Assembly: GCA_016191205.1 (NCBI GenBank)
Contig: JACPPB010000074.1
Span: forward strand, 62,001 to 126,000
Length of the DNA stretch: 64,000 bases
Source of the DNA: Gammaproteobacteria bacterium
Lineage (GTDB): Bacteria; Pseudomonadota; Gammaproteobacteria; Pseudomonadales; Porticoccaceae
Direction of reading: 5' to 3'
The notes beneath the pieces are model-generated. The model was not told the origin of the DNA. It did no database searches and saw only the letters and a program-made list of their open reading frames with translations. Shown in pieces: positions 1-62,829 of the stretch; the stretch's first letter is position 1, and each line of letters starts with the position of its first letter. Position numbers and translations under genes: made by a program.

Positions 1-522
1 AGTTGGCTTGAAACTAATCCTGCTGCGGGTTCCGAGGAGATGATTAAGCTTCCAGACGGCTCAAATTTCCTCATCTACTCGCCGAAAACCAAAACAGTGC
101 AAACAGAGAAGCAATACGACACCTCGAAACAGAAACCGCCACAAGCAGGCAAAGGAATCAAGGTCGATGTGTCGCTTGAGTTGGAGCGAGGGGCCGATGG
201 CCGAGTGCGCATTCTTGGAGCAACGAATCTTCCTCAGGGTATGACCTTAATGATTGGCCTTCGTAAAGTTGGCGCCAAATACCTTGTGCAAGACAAGGTC
301 GAAGTTATCAATGGTCGTATTTCGACCACTTGGTTTAGTGATGGCGGCAAGGCACTACCGTCTGGCGCGTACGAAGTGAGCATCTCTAGCCCGCTTCCAG
401 CATTGCAGCCGGCCGGTGTACGCGCTGTCATTGGCCAGACAGGAGAAAATCTTTCAGGTCCAATTGGAACGTCAATGGGTTCAAAGATGGTTGATCTCAC
501 TGTCAAGAAAACTATCCCCTGA
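1..522 (+). CDS. Hypothetical protein, 5'-partial
   Basis: The reading frame is open from base 1, so the gene probably begins before the window. The first internal ATG is at 40, but GAGGAG abuts it directly, too close to serve as a ribosome site for it. The visible part (about 173 residues) has no membrane segment or motif I recognise. It has a Lys/Gln-rich stretch near the front, then a section rich in Val, Leu and Gly that looks like a beta-sandwich, ending VDLTVKKTIP. Base composition is less GC-rich than the core genes that follow, which suggests acquired DNA. No function is proposed. Confidence 0.5.
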   Translation, partial: SWLETNPAAGSEEMIKLPDGSNFLIYSPKTKTVQTEKQYDTSKQKPPQAGKGIKVDVSLELERGADGRVRILGATNLPQGMTLMIGLRKVGAKYLVQDKVEVINGRISTTWFSDGGKALPSGAYEVSISSPLPALQPAGVRAVIGQTGENLSGPIGTSMGSKMVDLTVKKTIP

Positions 523-2627: not shown

Positions 2628-3488
2628 TCAGGTTTGGGGTTCGATCAGTTCGCGCACTTTTTTCATCGCGCTCTGTTCGAGCTGTCGAATCCGCTCGGCG
2701 GACACCGCGTATTTGGCCGCAAGGTCGTGCAGCGTGACCTTTTCGTCGCCCAGCCAGCGCTGCTGGATGATGTCGCGGCTGCGTGCGTCGAGCGTGGCTA
2801 CCGCGGCGCTGAGGCGGCCGTAATGAACATCTTCCCAGTCGGCCTGTTCGAGCTGCCGTGCCGGGTCGCCGCTGTGATCCTCAAGATATTGTGCGGGGAC
2901 CAGATAGCCCGAGTCTTCGTCCTCGTCGACGGACAGGTCAAACGACGCGTCGCGCGCGGACAGCCGCTGTTCCATCTCGCGTACCTGGTTGATCTCGACC
3001 CCGAGGTCCGCCGCCACCGCGGCGGCTTCTTCGTTGTTGAGCCAGCCCAGACGTTTCTTGCTGCCGCGCAGATTGAAGAACAGCTTGCGCTGCGCCTTGG
3101 TGGTGGCGACCTTCACGATGCGCCAGTTGCGCAGGACGTATTCGTGAATCTCGGCCTTGATCCAGTGCACCGCAAAGGAGATCAGGCGCACACCCTTGCT
3201 GGGGTCGAAACGCTTGACCGCCTTCATCAGGCCGACGTTGCCTTCCTGGACGATATCCGCCAGCGGCAGGCCGTAGCCGGAATAGGAGCGCGCGATGTGC
3301 ACCACGAACCGCAGGTGGGACAGCACCAGATCGCGGGCGGCATCCAGATCGTTGTGGTGATACAGGCGCTCGGCCAGTTCGCGCTCCTGCTCCGCGGACA
3401 ACACCGAAATCGCGCTCACGCTGTTCACATAAGCGGCGATATTGCCGCCCGGGATCAGCGGATTCACAACTTGCAGACTTCTACCCAT
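2628..3488 (-). CDS. rpoH: RNA polymerase heat-shock sigma factor sigma-32
   Basis: Directs RNA polymerase to heat-shock promoters. The 286 residues match the usual length (about 284). Region 2 contains [19 protein letters not shown] and [19 protein letters not shown]. The RpoH box QRKLFFNLR, diagnostic for sigma-32 among sigma-70 proteins, lies near residue 135. Region 4 ends with the [16 protein letters not shown] helix-turn-helix. It is transcribed away from ftsX, with its own promoter in the 97-base gap and a strong terminator downstream. The rpoH-ftsXEY order is typical of gammaproteobacteria. Confidence 0.97.
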
Positions 3489-27772: not shown

Positions 27773-28741
27773 ATGAGCACCACTTCGCTCGGCCTGGTTC
27801 TCTCCACCGCCACCGCAGCGCCGCCACGGGAACTGGCGGCCATCGGCCAGCTCGCCGAAGCGCACGGCTTCGCCGCCGTGCTGGTCAACGAGGGCCGCGG
27901 CGATGCGCTCGCCTGCGCCCAGGCCATTGCGGCGGTCACCCAGCGCGTCCAGGTCGGCACCAACATTGCCAACATCTATTACCGCCATCCTTTCCTCGCC
28001 GCGATGACGGCCGCCACCATCGCCGAGCTGTCGGAAGGAAGGCTGGTGCTGGGGCTCGGCATGAGCCACCGGCAACTGTTGAAAGCCCAGGGGATCGAAA
28101 TGAACAATCCCCGCGATTATTTGCGCGACTACACCCGGAAAGTGAAACAGATCCTGGCGGGCGAAGATCACAACCCCCTGTTCGCATCGCGTCCCTGTCC
28201 CTGGTCGGTGCCGGTGCTGGTGGCCGGGCTCACCGTGGAAAGCGCACAGGTGGCGGGCGAAGTGGCCGACGGACTGATGCCGTTTCTGGCGTCGCTGGAT
28301 TACCTCAAAGTGCTGCTCAAATCCGCGCGCGAACGCGCAAGCGCGGTCGGCCGCGATCCCGCGCAACTGGACTGCATCCTCAGCATCCCGACCTTCATGT
28401 CGAACAATCTCGGCGCCGCGATCTCCGCCGCCAAACACAACCTGGCGTTTTTTGCGCGACTACCCAATTACCGCTTGCAGTGGCGGCGCTGCGGTTTCGA
28501 TGCCGAAATGGATGCGGTGACCGAGGCCTGGAAGACCGGCGACCGCCGCGCCGCCGCGGCCTGTATCAGCGAAAACATGGTGAACCAGATCTGTATCTAC
28601 GGTTCACCGCAGATGTGCCGCTCGCAGCTCGCGGCGTTTCGCGCCGCCGGCGCACGGCTGCCGCTATTGGCGGTGAGCCCGGTCAACGATTCCGACCGGC
28701 TCGGCGCGACACGCGCGGCGATCCTGCAGTTGGCGCCCTGA
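27773..28741 (+). CDS. LLM-class flavin-dependent oxidoreductase, second copy
   Basis: The 322-residue luciferase-like protein begins MSTTSLGLVLSTATAAPP at the ATG at 27773, with AGAGGAA upstream. It has AIAAVTQRVQVGTNIANIYYRHP and the family segment IAELSEGRLVLGLGMSH. It resembles the F420-dependent subgroup in shape, but the cofactor cannot be decided from sequence alone. It is only distantly related to the oxidoreductase at 23410 and is the last gene before the repeat-rich island. Confidence 0.85.
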   Translation: MSTTSLGLVLSTATAAPPRELAAIGQLAEAHGFAAVLVNEGRGDALACAQAIAAVTQRVQVGTNIANIYYRHPFLAAMTAATIAELSEGRLVLGLGMSHRQLLKAQGIEMNNPRDYLRDYTRKVKQILAGEDHNPLFASRPCPWSVPVLVAGLTVESAQVAGEVADGLMPFLASLDYLKVLLKSARERASAVGRDPAQLDCILSIPTFMSNNLGAAISAAKHNLAFFARLPNYRLQWRRCGFDAEMDAVTEAWKTGDRRAAAACISENMVNQICIYGSPQMCRSQLAAFRAAGARLPLLAVSPVNDSDRLGATRAAILQLAP

Positions 28742-28754
28742 GCTGTTTCCCTGA

Positions 28755-28887
28755 CAGGCTGCTGAAAACGTCGCGCGGCGGCCAGCTGCGAGGCGCGCAG
28801 CAAGCGACATGTATCAACTCGATAATGGAGGAAGCGCGTAGCGCGCAACGCAACAAATGGTGCGCGCAGCGGTTTTTGAGCAGCCGG
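28755..28887. repeat. MITE-like interspersed repeat, copy 1
   Basis: The element is about 133 bases and bounded by imperfect inverted ends, CAGGCTGCTGAAAAC (28755) and GTTTTTGAGCAGCCGG (28872-28887). The body shares long stretches with copies at 29592 and 32312, including ATGTATCAACTCGATAATG. It ends exactly at the stop codon of vapC. It has no coding capacity. Confidence 0.75.
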
Positions 28888-29283
28888 TCAAGCCGCAGGG
28901 AGTGCGCGCGTGTGCTGCGGGAAGGCTTTCAACATTTTCCTGTCCATCGTCACGACCTTGATGCCAAGCTTCATGGCAACAGCGATGAACTCGCAGTCAT
29001 ACGCCGAACATTCACTATCGCGCACCAATTCAAGTACGCGCCGGGAATCGACTTCATGCTCGTTTCCGGATAGCAGTGCCTCTGCCTCCAACTGCACCAG
29101 CAAAGCTTCGTCAAAGGTTAACGTTTTTCGCCGTACATACCCCGCCAGCAGATTTCTGAACTCGCTTCGCCAAAGAATCGGCGCGACCCATTCCGGATCA
29201 CGCCTGAAGAGCGCGTCCGCCAGCGGACTATGCTCATAGGGGAGAAACAGATAGGCGAGTATATTCGTGTCCACCACTATCAC
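28888..29283 (-). CDS. vapC: PIN-domain toxin, VapC family
   Basis: The 131-residue predicted ribonuclease toxin of a type II toxin-antitoxin pair. The PIN-domain acidic residues are present: VVDTNIL (Asp 5), WRSEFRNLL (Glu), SAYDCEFIAVA (Asp) and VVTMDRKML (Asp). VapC proteins cleave tRNA or rRNA, but the target here is unknown. Its ATG overlaps the antitoxin stop by 4 bases. The gene is less GC-rich than the core genes and is flanked by repeats, pointing to horizontal gain. Confidence 0.9.
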   Translation of the reverse strand: MIVVDTNILAYLFLPYEHSPLADALFRRDPEWVAPILWRSEFRNLLAGYVRRKTLTFDEALLVQLEAEALLSGNEHEVDSRRVLELVRDSECSAYDCEFIAVAMKLGIKVVTMDRKMLKAFPQHTRALPAA

Positions 29284-29525
29284 ATGCGACCTTCGCTTTT
29301 CAGTGCGTCGATATCTTTGGCTTTGAACTTGCCTTGCGGCATTGATGCGCGAAGCGCCTGTACCCGGGCGAGCCGGTCAGCGGGAGAAACCTTGTCCGGA
29401 AGCAATACTGACTCCAAGCATACGATTGCTTCGCTGTTCAGGCTGCGCCGGTGTGCAACTGCGGCCGCTTTGAGGCGCTCGTACACTTCATCAGGAATGC
29501 TCTTCAAAGTGAGTGTCGTCGGCAT
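29280..29525 (-). CDS. vapB: Antitoxin of the VapBC pair, ribbon-helix-helix (FitA/Arc-like)
   Basis: An 81-residue protein starting MPTTLTLKSIPDEVYERLK, a ribbon-helix-helix DNA-binding fold of the Arc/FitA type, with HRRSLNSEAIVCLES as the following helices. The C-terminal tail would wrap the toxin. I chose the ATG at 29525 because GGAG lies six bases upstream. A TTG at 29537 is in frame but has no ribosome site. It precedes vapC and presumably represses the operon with it. Confidence 0.87.
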   Translation of the reverse strand: MPTTLTLKSIPDEVYERLKAAAVAHRRSLNSEAIVCLESVLLPDKVSPADRLARVQALRASMPQGKFKAKDIDALKSEGRM

Positions 29526-29545
29526 CGCTGGCTCCAAAAGTAACC

Positions 29546-29574: not shown

Positions 29575-29591
29575 GCCAAGCTGCCGCCTGA

Positions 29592-29690
29592 CAGGCTCCT
29601 GAAACACGTCGCGAGGCGGCCAGCAGTGAGCGAGATGTATCAACTCGATAATGAAGGGAGCGGGTACCGCGCAACGCAGAAGACGGCGCC
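29592..29690. repeat. MITE-like interspersed repeat, copy 2 (3' truncated)
   Basis: It begins CAGGCTCCTGAAACAC and shares GATGTATCAACTCGATAATG and GCGCAACGCAGAAGA with copy 1. The 3' inverted end is missing. It lies upstream of vapB in the same orientation as copy 1, so vapBC is bracketed by direct copies. Confidence 0.65.
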
Positions 29691-30308
29691 CCCCAGCGTA
29701 GATTTTGGCGCGAAGAGCAGCATTGGCACTCCCCCGGTGACAGGGTTAGGCTGCAACGCATTGAGTGAAAGCGGATTGCCGGTCGGCGACGCCGTCGGCA
29801 ACGGGTCGGAGACTGAATAAATCGCGTCTGATCCGATTGGAAAGCGTTGGCGCAATTGCAGTGCGAAGCATCATTTGCCTCCGGTATCGCCAACGGCTAC
29901 AGTTGGGCGATGGAAACAGGGAACGTCGTCTGGCATGCCGCCATCAACCGCAGTTCGTTCAGTTTCGACCCGGCAGGCTGCACTCCGTCTGCCTGGGTCA
30001 TTGCCTTGGGTCATTGCCCATCGACGCCCGCCGGCTCCACCAGCGAGCCGGGTGGCAGTGGCTTCCGAATATTCACGAAGGTCGGATCGTTTGGCCTCGA
30101 ATGCGACAATGCGAGAACAGACGCCGGTGCCGCGAGAACAGACCCCGGTGCCGCGGCGGAAGGCTCCAAACAAGCTGTGGAGCATCTATATTGGGGTCTA
30201 CTCGAACGACGACAAAGAGCACATCGAGCATCTAGCGCCGCGATTCCGATGCAAAGTCCACGTCTTCAACGCCAAGACCGCGAATGTATGGGGTCGATAA
30301 GGCATGAA
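29691..30308. other. Stretch without a recognisable complete gene
   Basis: Between repeat copy 2 and the first attC site I see no intact gene with a known family. A short frame ending at 30300 (…LWSIYIGVYSNDDKEHIEH… to VWGR) is protein-like and could be the tail of a broken cassette gene whose 5' part is lost. REP-like motifs occupy 30101-30146. Everything else is unexplained, and the frames are small and without ribosome sites. Confidence 0.4.
30101..30146 (-). repeat. REP-like motif, copy b, with a tandem 21-base duplication
   Basis: On the minus strand GTCTGTTCTCGCATTGTCGCAT (given here only as the match to copy a) is preceded by a second copy of its front half, GGGGTCTGTTCTCGC. On the plus strand this appears as two tandem 21-base units of GCGAGAACAGACSCCGGTGCC. 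It is the same family as 655-679. Confidence 0.5.
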
Positions 30309-30387
30309 ATATAACCATCGCTTCCAGCCGACGGACCCGCCTCCGCTTCGCTCCGGCAGGTTCGCGGCTGAAGCGAAGCGTTAGAGC
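30309..30387 (+). repeat. attC-like integron recombination site 1
   Basis: R'' is ATATAAC (30309-30315) and R' is GTTAGAGC (30380-30387). Between them TCGCTTCCAGCCG (30318-30330) pairs with CGGCTGAAGCGA (30365-30376) over 12 bases, leaving one extrahelical base. That is the layout expected for a folded attC, with a variable terminal loop between. Recombination would occur between G30380 and T30381. Confidence 0.75.
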
Positions 30388-30395
30388 ACTACAAC

Positions 30396-31217
30396 ATGCC
30401 CGCTCCGCTTACTGATGCCGTGATAATTGCCGTGGCGCGTCTCGTTGACGACGCACAGACGGAGACACGCGAGCCTAGCCACTCCGATATCGAGTTTCAG
30501 ATTCAACGGTCGCGGCTTACGGCTGGCGATCCAAAAGCACAAGGTCAGTTGGTTGGAAAAGCGAAGCGTGTGCGGGGTACGCTCAATTGGGCGCTGGACA
30601 ACAACGTCGCTGCTGGCGAATCTCTTGTTGAAAACCTAATTTCCCTCGTTCGCGGCTGCGGTGGTTTCCGGTCTGCCTCACCGAACTTTGTCGGTTCCGA
30701 AGCCATAGAAAATGCAATCGCTGCATTTCGTTCCGAGGGTTTCGTCTTAACAAGCGACGGCGAGTTACACGCCATCGTTCTTGAAAATCTGTCAGGTGCC
30801 GCGCTCACCGACGCGCTTTACGCATACGTTCGTCGCGCGAAGCGCGGCGCTGACGACGCCGCGCTACTCACTGGCACTGGCAAAGATCTTCTTGAGGCAA
30901 CCGCGGCTCACGTTCTTGTTGAAAGATTTGGTTCCTACCCGCGGGGTGCCAATTTCGAGGGTCTCTTAGGCCAAGCCTATGTGGCAATGGGGTTAGTAAC
31001 TCCTCAGCATCCGGTCCAACCGGGCGAGGCGCCTCAACGAAGAATCGAGAGGTCGATGTTTGATCTCGCTTGTTCCGTAAATGCCTTGCGAAATAAGGCG
31101 GGTACTGGTCACGGCCGTCCCTGGCTTCCGAACGTCACCGACACTGAAGCAAGGGCGGCCATTCAATTCATGGGCACCATCGCGGAGTGGCTGCTGTATG
31201 CACATAGCAAACGGTAG
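30396..31217 (+). CDS. Abortive-infection family protein (Abi_C-type C-terminus) in an integron cassette
   Basis: A 273-residue protein with the C-terminal abortive-infection motif ALRNKAGTGHGRPWLP preceded by a helical MFDLACSVN segment, which fits the Abi_C family (Pfam PF14355). These are phage-defence or cell-suicide proteins whose chemistry is mostly unknown. The N-terminal 200 residues show no motif I can name. The gene fills a 903-base cassette (30381-31283). The cassette opens with GTTAGAGC and its own attC opens with GCTCTAAC, the exact complement, as in a genuine cassette. The start is 15 bases from R' with no strong ribosome site. Confidence 0.75.
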   Translation: MPAPLTDAVIIAVARLVDDAQTETREPSHSDIEFQIQRSRLTAGDPKAQGQLVGKAKRVRGTLNWALDNNVAAGESLVENLISLVRGCGGFRSASPNFVGSEAIENAIAAFRSEGFVLTSDGELHAIVLENLSGAALTDALYAYVRRAKRGADDAALLTGTGKDLLEATAAHVLVERFGSYPRGANFEGLLGQAYVAMGLVTPQHPVQPGEAPQRRIERSMFDLACSVNALRNKAGTGHGRPWLPNVTDTEARAAIQFMGTIAEWLLYAHSKR

Positions 31218-31218
31218 T

Positions 31219-31290
31219 GCTCTAACCCTGCGGTCAACACGGACGCTGCGCGATAAAGCCTCGCAGCGCCAGTTACCTCCACGTTATGCC
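31219..31290 (+). repeat. attC-like integron recombination site 2
   Basis: R'' is GCTCTAAC (31219-31226) and R' GTTATGCC (31283-31290). Two stem segments pair with one unpaired base each: GGTCAAC (31232-31238) with GTTACC (31272-31277), and GGACGCTGCG (31241-31250) with CGCAGCGCC (31262-31270). The unpaired bases correspond to the extrahelical bases that IntI reads. Confidence 0.75.
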
Positions 31291-31306
31291 CTCTTAATCG
31301 AACCAC

Positions 31307-31333
31307 GGGGTCTGGTCTCGCATTGTAACATTC
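31307..31333 (+). repeat. REP-like motif, copy c, upstream of the transposase
   Basis: GGGGTCTGGTCTCGCATTG followed by TAACATTC. Its first nine bases pair with CCAGACCCC at 31363-31371 inside the start of the transposase gene, making a 9-base inverted repeat that could fold the transcript start or bind the protein. Confidence 0.55.
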
Positions 31334-31358
31334 AATCGGAGTAGTATATGCCTCCGGC

Positions 31359-31649
31359 ATGGCCAGACCCCTTCGCATAGAGTTTTCCGGAGCGCTTTAT
31401 CACGTGACCTCGCGTGGTGATCGTCAGGAGCCGATTTTTGCGGATGACGAAGACCGCCTGGCCTTCCTGAAGATACTGGCAGAGGTGGCGAAACGGTTCA
31501 ATTGGCTGTGCCATGCGTACTGCCTGATGACGAACCACTACCACCTTGTAGTGGAAACACCAGAAGCGAACTTGTCCAAAGGGATGCGTCAACTCAATGG
31601 GATGTATCCGCAGGAATCCAACCGACGCCATGGGCGAACGCGGCGTTAG
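31359..31649 (+). pseudogene. REP-associated tyrosine transposase (RAYT/Y1), C-terminally truncated
   Basis: The first 96 residues match RAYT proteins: MARPLRIEFSGALYHVTSRGD, a DEDRLAFL segment, and the HUH motif in CLMTNHYHLVVETP. RAYTs process REP sequences as single-strand DNA endonucleases. The normal protein is over 200 residues and carries the catalytic Tyr further on, so this copy is inactive. The break is just before GTTAGGCC at 31645, the R' of the next cassette, with the family's NRRHGR motif as the last recognisable part. Confidence 0.85.
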
Positions 31650-31652
31650 GCC
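31645..31652 (+). repeat. attC R'-like core starting the toxin-antitoxin cassette
   Basis: GTTAGGCC is the exact complement of GGCCTAAC at 32305-32312, downstream of the antitoxin gene. Matched R' and R'' copies at both ends are expected of one integrated cassette. The upstream half of this attC is missing and replaced by the broken transposase. Confidence 0.6.
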
Positions 31653-31668
31653 ACACAGGAACCTCCGC

Positions 31669-31696
31669 TTGCACGAATCGTATCCCATGTGATACA
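31669..31696 (+). promoter_or_regulatory. Putative promoter and operator of the relE/parE-type pair
   Basis: TTGCAC (31669-31674) and GATACA (31691-31696) are spaced by 16 bases. GTATC ccatgt GATAC (31680-31695) is an inverted repeat that overlaps the -10 region, as is common for autorepressed toxin-antitoxin operons. Transcription would start at about 31703, next to the toxin ATG. Confidence 0.45.
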
Positions 31697-31704
31697 TTGC
31701 GACT

Positions 31705-31995
31705 ATGCTCGAAGTTCGCCAGACAGTCGCCTATGCCGAATGGTTTTCTGGCCTGCGGGACCGAGCTGCCAAGACTCGAATCGATATCCGTATCCGTCGC
31801 CTCTCGCTTGGAAACCCAGGCGACGTGAAGCCTGTCGGCGGAGGTGTTTCGGAACTCCGTGTGGATTACGGCCCTGGCTATCGCGTGTACTTCGTCCAGA
31901 AGGGGGATATGTACGTGGTCTTGCTGGCAGGTGGCGACAAGTCAACCCAAGACCGAGACATACGTGAGGCAAAGGCGCTGGCGCGCGACTTGTAG
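31705..31995 (+). CDS. RelE/ParE-family toxin (HigB-like addiction-module killer, TIGR02683 type)
   Basis: A 96-residue protein. Its core DYGPGYRVYFVQKGDMYVVLL is followed by GGDKSTQDRDIREAK, the pattern of TIGR02683 killer proteins, which inhibit translation by ribosome-dependent mRNA cleavage or act on gyrase. The ATG at 31705 has no upstream ribosome site. If the promoter call is right, the mRNA begins within one or two bases, so translation would be leaderless. The antitoxin follows 10 bases later. Confidence 0.88.
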   Translation: MLEVRQTVAYAEWFSGLRDRAAKTRIDIRIRRLSLGNPGDVKPVGGGVSELRVDYGPGYRVYFVQKGDMYVVLLAGGDKSTQDRDIREAKALARDL

Positions 31996-32005
31996 GAGCT
32001 CTGAC

Positions 32006-32311
32006 ATGGCAAAGACAATCACCACTCCTTGGGACCCTGCGGACCATCTGCAGACGAACGAAGATATGGCCGCTTACCTTGAGGCAGCGCTTGAGGAAGG
32101 TGACGCTACTCTGGTTGCTGCGGCGCTGGGCGACATTGCGCGCGCCAAAGGCATGACGCAAGTAGCTCGCGATGCCGGCCTTGGACGAGAAAGTCTTTAC
32201 AAAGCGCTATCCCCGGCGGGCAACCCTGAGTTCGCAACTATCCTCAAGGTGGTTGCTGCCCTTGGGCTTCAACTCCACGCCACGCCGGTCGCCGCCAAGA
32301 GTGCGGCCTAA
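32006..32311 (+). CDS. Antitoxin, HigA-like helix-turn-helix (TIGR02684 type)
   Basis: A 101-residue antitoxin with a Cro/C1-like helix-turn-helix (LGDIARAKGMTQVARDAGLG, then RESLYKALS) and a front section (LQTNEDMAAYLEAALEEGD) typical of TIGR02684 antidotes. The ATG at 32006 has AGGAG seven bases upstream. The TAA stop lies inside GGCCTAAC, the R'' core of the cassette's attC. Confidence 0.87.
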   Translation: MAKTITTPWDPADHLQTNEDMAAYLEAALEEGDATLVAAALGDIARAKGMTQVARDAGLGRESLYKALSPAGNPEFATILKVVAALGLQLHATPVAAKSAA

Positions 32312-32452
32312 CAGGTTGCTGAAAAACGTCGCGAGGGGGCCAGATGCGAGGCGCACGGCGCGCAGCGACCGAGACATATCAAGTGGATAGGCGAGGGAGC
32401 GAGCACCGCGCAACGAAGCAGATGGTGCCCGCAGCAGTTTTTCAGCAACCTG
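32312..32452. repeat. MITE-like interspersed repeat, copy 3, complete with target duplication
   Basis: The 141-base element is bounded by perfect 16-base inverted ends, CAGGTTGCTGAAAAAC (32312-32327) and GTTTTTCAGCAACCTG (32437-32452). It is flanked by CTAA on both sides (32308-32311 and 32453-32456), which looks like a 4-base target duplication. The insertion splits the R'' part of attC site 3. It carries no coding sequence and is related to copies 1 and 2. Confidence 0.8.
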
Positions 32453-32521
32453 CTAACCATTCCATCGAGCCGACAGACACCGGCAAGCCGGTGTCTGTCG
32501 GCTCATGTCAAACGTTGAGGC
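32453..32521 (+). repeat. attC-like integron recombination site 3, interrupted by a repeat
   Basis: CTAACC is followed by the hairpin arms GAGCCGACAGACACCGGC (32467-32484) and GCCGGTGTCTGTCGGCTC (32487-32504), with only AA between, and ends with R' GTTGAGGC (32514-32521). Removing the repeat and one CTAA joins GGCCTAAC to CATTCC and restores a normal attC. The arms are perfectly paired, unlike sites 1 and 2. Confidence 0.65.
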
Positions 32522-32596: not shown

Positions 32597-32674
32597 ATGG
32601 CGCGTTTCAAACCCGTTCGCCGCAGCCTCAAGTTATTGCCGGTGGACCTGGATCGACGGCTTCAACCGCGATAA
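32597..32674 (+). pseudogene. IS1182-family transposase remnant (N-terminal fragment)
   Basis: Only 25 codons remain: MARFKPVRRSLKLLPVDLDR, then a few residues and a stop. MxRFKP...LKLLPVDL is the typical start of IS1182-family transposases. No other part of the element is visible. It follows attC site 3 by about 75 bases. Confidence 0.65.
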
Positions 32675-32761
32675 AGGGGTCCGCGACACGACACGACAAA
32701 TGCGAGACAAAGGGGTCTACCATCGAATTTGCAGGTTGACGGGCTCCCTTGCACGAACAAC

Positions 32762-61608: not shown

Positions 61609-62829
61609 TTGCACCCATCTACCGAGTCACACGGACGCGCTCCAACCCGCTTCGCCCGCCTGCGCACTGCCATCCGCACCCGTTATGCCTGGATCGCGTT
61701 GCTGCTGTTCTTCGCGATCTGCTTCCTCCCGGACAACCGCACCGCCGCCACCAATCTTTACCGCCTGCTGGTGGTGGTGCCCATGCTGCTGTGTTTCCGG
61801 CCTGCCGATCTGCGGCTGATCTGGCAACAGGCTCCGGCGCGCTGGTTTCTGCTGCTGTGCGGCTGGCTTTCGCTCACCCTGCTGTGGGATGGCTGGAGCC
61901 ACACCGATTTCAAGCTGCTGCTGCGCGAGTTGAACGTGCTGGCGCTGTTTTATCTGGTCTATCTGGTCGGCACCCTGCATCGGGCGCGGGTACCGACCTT
62001 GCTGACCGGCCTGATGGTGCTCGGGCTGGGCGGTGCCGCGCTGATCGTCGCGGACTGGCCCCAGGGCTGGAAGCAGCACGCACTGTCGGCGCGCGGCGTG
62101 TTCAATCACCATGTGACCGTCGGTTGGGCACTGGCGATGGTCGCCATCGTCGCCCTGTATCAAACCCTGAACATGACGCGACGGAGTTTGGCGTGCGCCT
62201 GCGGGTTCGCTGCCCTCGCGCTGGGGATGCTGGTGTTCTGGGTGCAGGCGCGCGGCGCCTATGTGGTGCTGGGAGCGGGGACGCTGCTGCTGCTCGCCTT
62301 GTTTCCGGGCCGGCGCGCGGCGATCCTGGCCATCGCCACCGCCGGTCTGACACTGCTGCTGGCACTGATCTTCCGGCAGGAACTGACCCTGGTTGCCGGC
62401 CATGTGGTCGAGCGTGGCACTTCCATGCGCCTGCCGATCTGGCGCAACGGGTGGGAGGCGGTGACCGACTCCTGGCGCTGGCTGTGGTTCGGTCACGGAC
62501 TGTCCGTTGACTCCGAGAACTGGAACGGCGGTATCGTCGCGCGGCACTACCACAATCTGCTGTTGAATCAGGCGTTTTACGCCGGGTTGATCGGTGTCGG
62601 GCTGTATCTGGGATGGCTCGCGAGCCTGCTGCGGGCGGCGGTTCGGGAGCGCCACCTGTGGCTCTGGGGTGCGCTGGTCTTCGCCATGCAGTTCGGCTTC
62701 ATCACCGACGGCGACCAGTTGTTCGTGAATCCTTCCGCGATACTGCTGGCCTTCCTGCTGCCGGCGTTCCTGCTCGGGTTTCGGGTGCCGGTGCCGGTTC
62801 GGCCGCCTTCACCGGCCCGAGTCGCATGA
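61609..62829 (+). CDS. O-antigen ligase family protein (WaaL-like)
   Basis: A 406-residue inner-membrane protein with about ten helices and the Wzy_C/O-antigen-ligase domain. The long periplasmic loop contains VVERGTSMRLPIWRNGWEAV and HYHNLLLNQAFYAG, where the conserved His/Arg are expected. FNHHVTVGWAL is also family-like. It should ligate O-polysaccharide to the lipid A-core. The start is TTG at 61609, 13 bases after hldE. A ligase of related glycans is also possible. It overlaps the convergent aldo/keto reductase by 21 bases. Confidence 0.82.
   Translation: MHPSTESHGRAPTRFARLRTAIRTRYAWIALLLFFAICFLPDNRTAATNLYRLLVVVPMLLCFRPADLRLIWQQAPARWFLLLCGWLSLTLLWDGWSHTDFKLLLRELNVLALFYLVYLVGTLHRARVPTLLTGLMVLGLGGAALIVADWPQGWKQHALSARGVFNHHVTVGWALAMVAIVALYQTLNMTRRSLACACGFAALALGMLVFWVQARGAYVVLGAGTLLLLALFPGRRAAILAIATAGLTLLLALIFRQELTLVAGHVVERGTSMRLPIWRNGWEAVTDSWRWLWFGHGLSVDSENWNGGIVARHYHNLLLNQAFYAGLIGVGLYLGWLASLLRAAVRERHLWLWGALVFAMQFGFITDGDQLFVNPSAILLAFLLPAFLLGFRVPVPVRPPSPARVA

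What the first reader, a model, noticed from the sequence alone, without database searches (positions are those of the whole stretch)
30309..32521. Cassette cluster with three attC-like sites and no integrase (CALIN-like)
Two folded attC sites with extrahelical bases (30309 and 31219) and a third interrupted one (32453) carry matched cassette ends. GTTAGAGC pairs with GCTCTAAC around the Abi gene, and GTTAGGCC with GGCCTAAC around the toxin-antitoxin pair. No integron integrase is in the window. The cluster sits between core genes, unlinked to resistance genes.
Basis: partly seen in the sequence, partly recalled or inferred. Interest (0 to 1): 0.75.

Follow-up and report, generated by a model that had tools for sequence, protein, structure and literature searches.

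The report
Integron cassette cluster without working integrase
This stretch of bacterial DNA holds integron gene cassettes, one for an abortive-infection-type protein predicted to act against phages and one for a toxin-antitoxin pair, likely left behind by a gene-capture system of which the same genome still shows two broken integrase genes and five copies of a predicted docking site.

Summary
In detail: window 30309-32520 is a CALIN, a known kind of element. Site 1 scores 30.9 bits (E 1.2e-4 over 177 kb) with an attC covariance model built from relatives. Sites 2 and 3 are not significant with it and rest on other evidence. A Thiobacillus record carries the Abi cassette at 92.5% DNA identity over exactly window 30381-31289, from the G^TT cut to the next attC core: the best proof for site 2. 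Site 3 is split inside R'' by a 141-bp inverted-repeat element between CTAA repeats; the joined empty site matches the cassette's other end 8 of 8.

No intact intI was found in the draft genome (90.9% complete), but two N-terminal remnants were, each at an attI-like site followed by cassette DNA. That attI-like core occurs at five places, three without any intI. Another cassette cluster overlaps the window's left edge. The finding is thus one part of a dispersed, probably decayed integron system. The window cluster is an ordinary CALIN; the five attI-like copies without a working integrase are the unusual part.

The parts
30309..30386 (+). attC site 1 (R'' ATATAAC, extrahelical C, R' GTTAGAG); end of an upstream cassette whose gene was not recognised
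   Evidence: R2 30.9 bits, E 1.2e-4 over 177 kb; stem geometry
30381..31283 (+). Abi gene cassette (TTAGAGC ... G)
   Evidence: 13-nt matched ends; Thiobacillus DNA 92.5% over exactly 30381-31289
30396..31217 (+). Abi_C protein, 273 aa; C-terminal half predicted HEPN-like with R232-x6-H239
31220..31289 (+). attC site 2 (R'' CTCTAAC, extrahelical C, R' GTTATGC)
   Evidence: Not significant by model (6.6 bits); cassette-limited homology ends here
31307..31644 (+). 5' fragment of a REP-associated Y1 transposase gene, cut just before GTTAGGCC
   Evidence: Y1_Tnp E 1.6e-9; NF047646 below cut-off; paralog C49:34668-35005, 87% over the same 338 bp, continues past the break
31646..32514 (+). Toxin-antitoxin cassette (TTAGGCC ... 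G), interrupted near its end by the element at 32312-32452
   Evidence: GTTAGGCC/GGCCTAAC 8 of 8
31705..31995 (+). RelE/ParE-family toxin (upstrm_HI1419 type)
   Evidence: TIGR02683 E 8.6e-38
32006..32311 (+). Antidote (dnstrm_HI1420 type)
   Evidence: TIGR02684 E 8e-39; PF21716
32312..32452 (.). 141-bp inverted-repeat element (MITE-like) inside R'' of attC 3, flanked by CTAA repeats
   Evidence: 41 matches in own genome, itself included, with 40 of 65 candidates scored; 10 of 18 two-ended copies have a perfect 4-bp repeat
32305..32520 (+). attC site 3, split: GGCCTAA (32305-32311), element, then CTAAC..GTTGAGG (32453-32520)
   Evidence: Empty-site fold and score; no covariance-model hit
1..522 (+). 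Tail of a gene in another cassette cluster that starts left of the window (attC at C49:61626-61700)
   Evidence: R2 26.0 bits, E 0.0019; ends GTTAGAC/GTCTAAC read directly

Best explanation
This is a cluster of integron gene cassettes with no integrase beside it (a CALIN), holding an Abi cassette and a toxin-antitoxin cassette, and it is likely a relic of a chromosomal integron system whose integrase genes are now broken. Shown: attC site 1; a cassette whose exact limits recur with other flanks in a Thiobacillus record; a cassette whose end is split by a repeated element between 4-bp direct repeats; two intI N-terminal remnants; five attI-like sites that end at the same point, where different cassette DNA begins. 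Inferred: an IntI once cut G^TT at these sites and inserted the cassettes. Later MITE-like insertions, a Y1-transposase fragment and deletions removed or blocked the platform, so today the cassettes would move only if an IntI were supplied in trans. The Abi protein is predicted to be a HEPN-type ribonuclease that would act against phage.
For: Model R2, built from 28 attC of relatives with no own-genome site, hits site 1 at E 1.2e-4. Identity to Thiobacillus L110 jumps from 1-6 of 15 to 14 of 15 exactly at 30381, and BLAST limits are 30381-31289. The 13-nt ends are unique in the window. intI remnants: C49:27734-27955, profile 1-74, and C6:119413-119649, profile 2-80. attI-like DNA at 5 places; the four other copies stop at query base 442 although that query ran on to 446. 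Matched-end cassettes begin there at C8 (11 nt), C25 (12) and C6:119k (9) and at C6:10k (10, read). Abi relatives: ends of 9 nt or more in 3 of 72 loci against 0 of 268 shifted controls.
Confidence: 0.87

Rival explanations
1. The cassettes were inserted one by one at ordinary genomic sites (attG) by an IntI acting in trans, so the cluster was never next to an integrase.
For: No attI-like DNA lies at this cluster. Congeners' recG stretches show no trace of the region. PMC12444791 (passages read) mentions attG integration across many loci in E. coli.
Against: An attC stands before the first gene (30309), so at least one more cassette preceded it; five other loci in this genome keep attI-like DNA.
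Confidence: 0.25
2. The integron is still working: an intact intI lies in the missing tenth of the genome and acts on all loci in trans.
For: Completeness 90.86%; 18 of 61 genomes searched in the family have an intI above the curated cut-off; the attI cores are better kept (90% over 98 bases) than the longer stretch that includes the intI remnants (77%).
Against: No match above the cut-off in 2.52 Mb; both intI remnants break inside contigs; attC 3 is split.
Confidence: 0.15
3. The hairpins are terminators or repeats and the matching ends are chance.
For: Site 3 is a perfect 18-bp inverted repeat; 8-nt end pairs are common; my scanner finds scores up to 31.4 in shuffles, above site 1's 30.1.
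Against: R2 hit at site 1; exact cassette-limited homology in Thiobacillus.
Confidence: 0.03

Closest known systems
[quoted passage not shown]
   Same: At least two attC sites, cassette genes, no integrase nearby; [quoted passage not shown]
   Different: One attC is split by a MITE-like element; the genome also has five attI-like sites and two intI remnants.
Decayed Xanthomonas integrons with CALINs at several loci (PMC12444791, section 11 and passages read)
   Same: Truncated or lost intI, CALINs at several chromosomal loci.
   Different: There intI sits at ilvD in nearly all genomes that have it; here attI-like DNA is found at five places, three without intI.
Delta-attI-type gene cassettes of class 1 and 2 integrons (PMC12901181, abstract and section 5 read)
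   Same: Pieces of attI of varying length ending at the crossover point.
   Different: There delta-attI replaces attC inside mobile resistance arrays; here attI-like pieces start separate chromosomal cassette loci.
IS1111-attC insertion sequences (PMC11187229, search listing only; the rest recalled)
   Same: An element inside an attC site.
   Different: Here a short MITE-like element prefers YTAR; 1 of the 20 copies examined is in an attC.

Membership tests
CALIN | At least two attC sites close together | tested here: met
   Site 1 by model; site 2 by cassette-limited homology; site 3 by geometry and restored ends only
CALIN | No intact integron integrase nearby | tested here: met
   No TIGR02249 match over cut-off in own genome; nearest remnant C49:27734, about 64 kb left
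CALIN | attC recognised by a covariance model at each site | tested here: inconclusive
   My small models find only site 1 at significance; IntegronFinder's own model was not on hand
Complete integron | Functional intI | tested here: not met
   Only N-terminal remnants in the draft genome
Complete integron | attI at this cluster | tested here: not met
   Five attI-like sites, none in the window; another kind of attI would not have been seen
Integron gene cassette (Abi) | Mobile unit bounded by G^TT and its own attC | tested here: met
   Same limits in the Thiobacillus record
Integron gene cassette (Abi) | IntI-mediated excision | not testable with these tools
   Needs a recombination assay
MITE, IS5-subgroup-like | Short, terminal inverted repeats, no gene, many copies, target duplication | tested here: met
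   10 of 18 two-ended copies with perfect 4-bp repeats, 13 of 18 left flanks YTAR
MITE, IS5-subgroup-like | A parent IS5-type element with the same ends | not tested
   YTAR preference of IS5 elements is recalled; one paper search on it gave no paper that I read
HEPN ribonuclease (Abi protein) | HEPN fold with R-x4-6-H | tested here: inconclusive

The most novel reading that the evidence does not exclude
The genome carries a chromosome-wide integron network: one attI landing site copied to at least five chromosomal places, each with its own cassettes (among them SIR2, TIR and a toxin-antitoxin pair), served in trans by an integrase that has since been lost or is still hidden. attI itself, not only cassettes, would then have spread inside a genome, a layout that standard tools miss because they do not look for attI outside class 1 integrons.
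Probability: 0.4. Interest if true: 0.68.

Novelty: new member of a known kind. Interest (0 to 1): 0.45.

Why it matters
It gives a clear case of what looks like integron decay at several stages in one genome: attI-like site with an intI stub, attI-like site alone, and cassettes alone. It also suggests how a short element that prefers YTAR can hit attC, because the CTAA of R'' and the TTAG of R' fit that target. The Abi cassette's exact recurrence in a Thiobacillus record shows that a likely phage-defence gene moves as an integron cassette. If the five attI-like copies were once used together, attI spread becomes a testable question.

Tried and rejected
Rfam gave no meaningful match for the region (three hits, all far below gathering scores). 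A first scan requiring 6 of 7 R''/R' complementarity listed none of the three window sites, because R'' and R' of neighbouring cassettes need not match. Model R1 (site ends only) hit site 1 weakly (20.8 bits, E 0.06), and with filters off it lost it, probably because the short model cannot span the loop. Training sites were picked by me from the scanner's lists, with implausible candidates left out; of 30 relatives' sites measured, 27 went into R1 and 28 into R2. Whole-genome searches with R1 and R2 scored only 150 of 860 and 150 of 563 first-look candidates and missed sites found in the stretches, so they are no census of attC. MITE targeting of attC was considered and rejected: 19 of the 20 copies examined (of 41 matches) gave no attC at score 20 or more. 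Truncation of intI by the MITE is only a lead: a 22-nt end fragment lies near the C6 remnant (E 0.005); near the C49 remnant a resemblance is visible by eye, but BLAST at E <= 0.05 did not list it. Comparing the empty locus in congeners failed: nothing right of recG matched in 3 of 3 fetched stretches, which are short. Plasmids: 152 records matched, none over 80% of the query; the 20 listed rows fall in the TA-gene region at 63-72% identity; 132 records were not seen, and by the tally 99 of the 152 have best pieces at 80-95% identity that I did not look into. PADLOC had no model for the Abi protein. No PDB chain matched its profile by sequence at E <= 1. In the intI search over relatives, matches below the cut-off were not counted as intI.
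Full report
What is there. The window is bases 62001-126000 of contig C49 (156,744 bases) of a draft genome of 2.52 Mb in 76 contigs, 90.86% complete. Between 30309 and 32520 the cassette genes read on the + strand. In order: attC 1 (30309-30386); an Abi_C gene (30396-31217; PF14355, E 1.1e-14); attC 2 (31220-31289); a piece of a REP-associated Y1 transposase gene (31307-31644); an HI1419/HI1420-type toxin-antitoxin pair (31705-32311; TIGR02683 and TIGR02684); and attC 3, split by an inverted-repeat element (32312-32452).

Are the sites attC? I collected attC sites from relatives that carry integron integrases. In the family, 18 of 61 genomes searched, the own genome among the 61, have a TIGR02249 match above the curated cut-off. 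The 27 site ends used for R1 showed 80.8% paired cells against 59.5% in shuffles and 30-38% when the partner is slid. I picked the sites by folding and set the structure myself, so this is partly circular. Model R2 (28 full sites, none from the own genome) finds site 1 at 30.9 bits, E 1.2e-4 over 176,945 bases. In the same search it finds three more sites on C49 and one on C6: C49:28680 (36.1 bits), C49:61626 (26.0), C49:29630 (20.3, E 0.044) and C6:117706 (16.5, E 0.38). Two further matches, 13.3 bits at window 2930-2967 and 11.3 bits in L042, look like chance. Site 2 gets only 6.6 bits (E 1.8) and site 3 none.

Why site 2 is nevertheless real. DNA similarity covers window 30381-31289 at 92.5% identity and no more. 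In 15-base bins identity is 1-6 of 15 in the six bins up to base 30380 and 13-14 of 15 in the four bins from 30381 on. 30380/30381 is the G^TT cut of attC 1, and 31283-31289 is the R' box of attC 2. Flanks differ on both sides. The cassette's ends pair over 13 bases (GTTAGAGCACTAC / GTAGTGCTCTAAC), the only GTTR end pair of 11 or more bases in the 64-kb window; a scan with the strict box GTTRRRY (8 pairs, longest 9) leaves it out, because this R' ends in G. Among 72 loci of Abi relatives, matched ends of 9 bases or more occur in 3 (L109, L143, L151) against 0 of 268 shifted controls. R2 finds attC directly beside the gene in L143 and L171. L110 itself fails the matched-end test, and R2 finds nothing in it. 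The gene is thus sometimes a cassette; most of the 72 loci show no such sign.

Why site 3 is interrupted. The element 32312-32452 has near-perfect terminal inverted repeats (I4) and 41 matches in the own genome, itself included, with 40 of 65 candidates scored. Of the 20 best copies, 18 have both ends, 10 of those show a perfect 4-bp direct repeat, and 13 have a left flank YTAR. Here the repeat is CTAA. Joining the flanks gives GGCCTAAC, which matches GTTAGGCC at the cassette start 8 of 8, and the joined site scores 35.7 in my scanner; six shuffles of the window reached at most 31.4. As they stand, site 3 scores 31.7 and site 1 30.1, within reach of the shuffles. None of the other 19 empty sites gave an attC at score 20 or more. 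The element therefore does not seem to seek attC; it likely landed there because R'' and R' boxes can contain YTAR. That IS5-type elements prefer YTAR is recalled, not taken from a call.

The transposase piece. The paralog at C49:34668-35005 is 87% identical over the same 338 bases and then runs on, while the window copy stops at base 31644, just before GTTAGGCC. The attC that should stand before the toxin-antitoxin cassette is missing its left part. Deletion is the simplest reading; it is inferred.

The rest of the system. No intact intI was found. Two stretches match the N-terminal part of TIGR02249: C49:27734-27955 (profile 1-74) and C6:119413-119649 (2-80). Both lie inside contigs. The other matches belong to an intact 392-aa tyrosine recombinase on C3, far below the cut-off (84.7 against 265 bits), which I take for Xer-type without a test. 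On the far side of each intI start lies about 98 bp of shared DNA, then a cassette. This attI-like DNA is found at five places in the genome; 10 of 10 candidates were scored, and a sixth match is a 15-base chance hit. Coordinates: C49:27984-28081, C6:119251-119348, C8:178016-178112, C25:31976-32021, C6:10095-10135. With a query that ran 4 bases past the junction, the four other copies all stopped at query base 442. That base is the G of their own G^TT; C49 has one more G before its TT. A core of about 41 bases is shared by all five. Matched-end cassettes begin there: C8 11 bases, C25 12 bases and C6:119k 9 bases; C6:10k has 10 (GTTATGCCTC/GAGGCATAAC), read directly. The same scan listed 4 other pairs of 9-11 bases elsewhere in these stretches, so the length alone proves nothing; what counts is that the pairs start at the attI junction and end at a hairpin. 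At C49 no pair of 9 or more was listed; attC sites follow at 28680 and 29630. R2 supports attC at C25 (25.0 bits, E 0.0011), weakly at C8 (16.0 bits, E 0.17), and finds none at C6:10k. Cargo includes a SIR2-like protein followed by a Gp49-type toxin and an HI1420-type antidote (C8) and a TIR protein with DUF1883 followed by a DUF5343 protein (C6:10k). Five of the ten cargo proteins tested had no Pfam match.

How widespread is this attI? In 112 genomes of the family, 2 had any match, the own one and G031, whose matches cover only the first 51 query bases, outside the attI part (5 candidates at most were scored in the genomes listed). In 390 genomes of the order, 4 had a match, and only the own genome's reached the attI part (2 candidates at most were scored in those listed). 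Absence elsewhere is therefore only weakly tested.

A second cassette cluster begins left of the window: GTTAGAC at C49:60958, attC at 61626-61700, and a gene whose tail is window 1-522.

Setting. In G023 and G031 the LLM-oxidoreductase, hydrolase and recG block is conserved (recG about 75%; the G031 oxidoreductase is cut by its contig end). In G012 only recG itself matched (66%). None of the 13 window genes tested right of recG was found in the three fetched stretches, which reach 7.3, 2.9 and 13.2 kb past recG. The region looks variable; 'between core genes' is only partly right. The gene to the right is an EmrB-type efflux pump on the other strand (TIGR00711, 382.6 bits), not a cassette.

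Comparison with what is known. [quoted passage not shown] IntegronFinder 2.0 requires two attC sites by default and does not detect attI outside class 1 (PMC9024848, passages). Xanthomonas shows CALINs at several loci with truncated or lost intI (PMC12444791, passages and section 11). Nearly a third of intI genes were pseudogenes in a 2008 survey (PMC2426708, passages). Pieces of attI inside arrays are described for class 1 and 2 integrons (PMC12901181, abstract and section 5). My searches for dispersed or orphan attI listed no paper whose title or opening lines tell of attI copies at several chromosomal sites without intI; this covers only the open library and those terms.

Verdict. The window feature is a real CALIN and so a new member of a known kind. 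What lifts it above the ordinary is the genome around it: what looks like several stages of integron decay side by side, with attI-like DNA kept at five places.

Noticed in passing
window 1-522 and C49:60958-62000 (L040): Another cassette cluster overlaps the window's left edge: ends GTTAGAC/GTCTAAC, attC C49:61626-61700 (26.0 bits).
   Followed up: partly
C49:27640-29700 (L038), C6:117200-119650 (L043): Two intI N-terminal remnants, each at an attI-like site with cassettes on the far side; the C6 one lies beside a tRNA-Ser gene.
   Followed up: yes
C8:178016 (L105), C25:31976 (L106), C6:10095 (L107): attI-like sites without any intI, followed by cassettes with SIR2, unknown and TIR genes; the C8 one is followed by a Gp49/HI1420-type pair of the same Pfam families as the window's.
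   Followed up: partly
window 28754-28885 and 29591-29691: Two more, decayed copies of the inverted-repeat element close to the cluster.
   Followed up: partly
window 29722-29800 and C49:60644-60722 (L040): An 80-bp repeat (76%) stands upstream of both cassette clusters, containing GGTTAGGCTGCAACGCATTGA.
   Followed up: no
window 30099-30152, 31306-31333, 32667-32717: Short repeats, some inverted, of the kind GCGAGAxxAGACCCCG or GCGAxAAAGGGGTC, perhaps ends of the REP/Y1 transposase element.
   Followed up: no
window 28888-29537, - strand: PIN-domain toxin and ribbon-helix-helix antitoxin pair, VapBC/FitAB-like, just left of the cluster.
   Followed up: no
C49:131714-131781 (L041): An internally deleted copy of the inverted-repeat element: bases 1-68 joined to about 126-142.
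   Followed up: no
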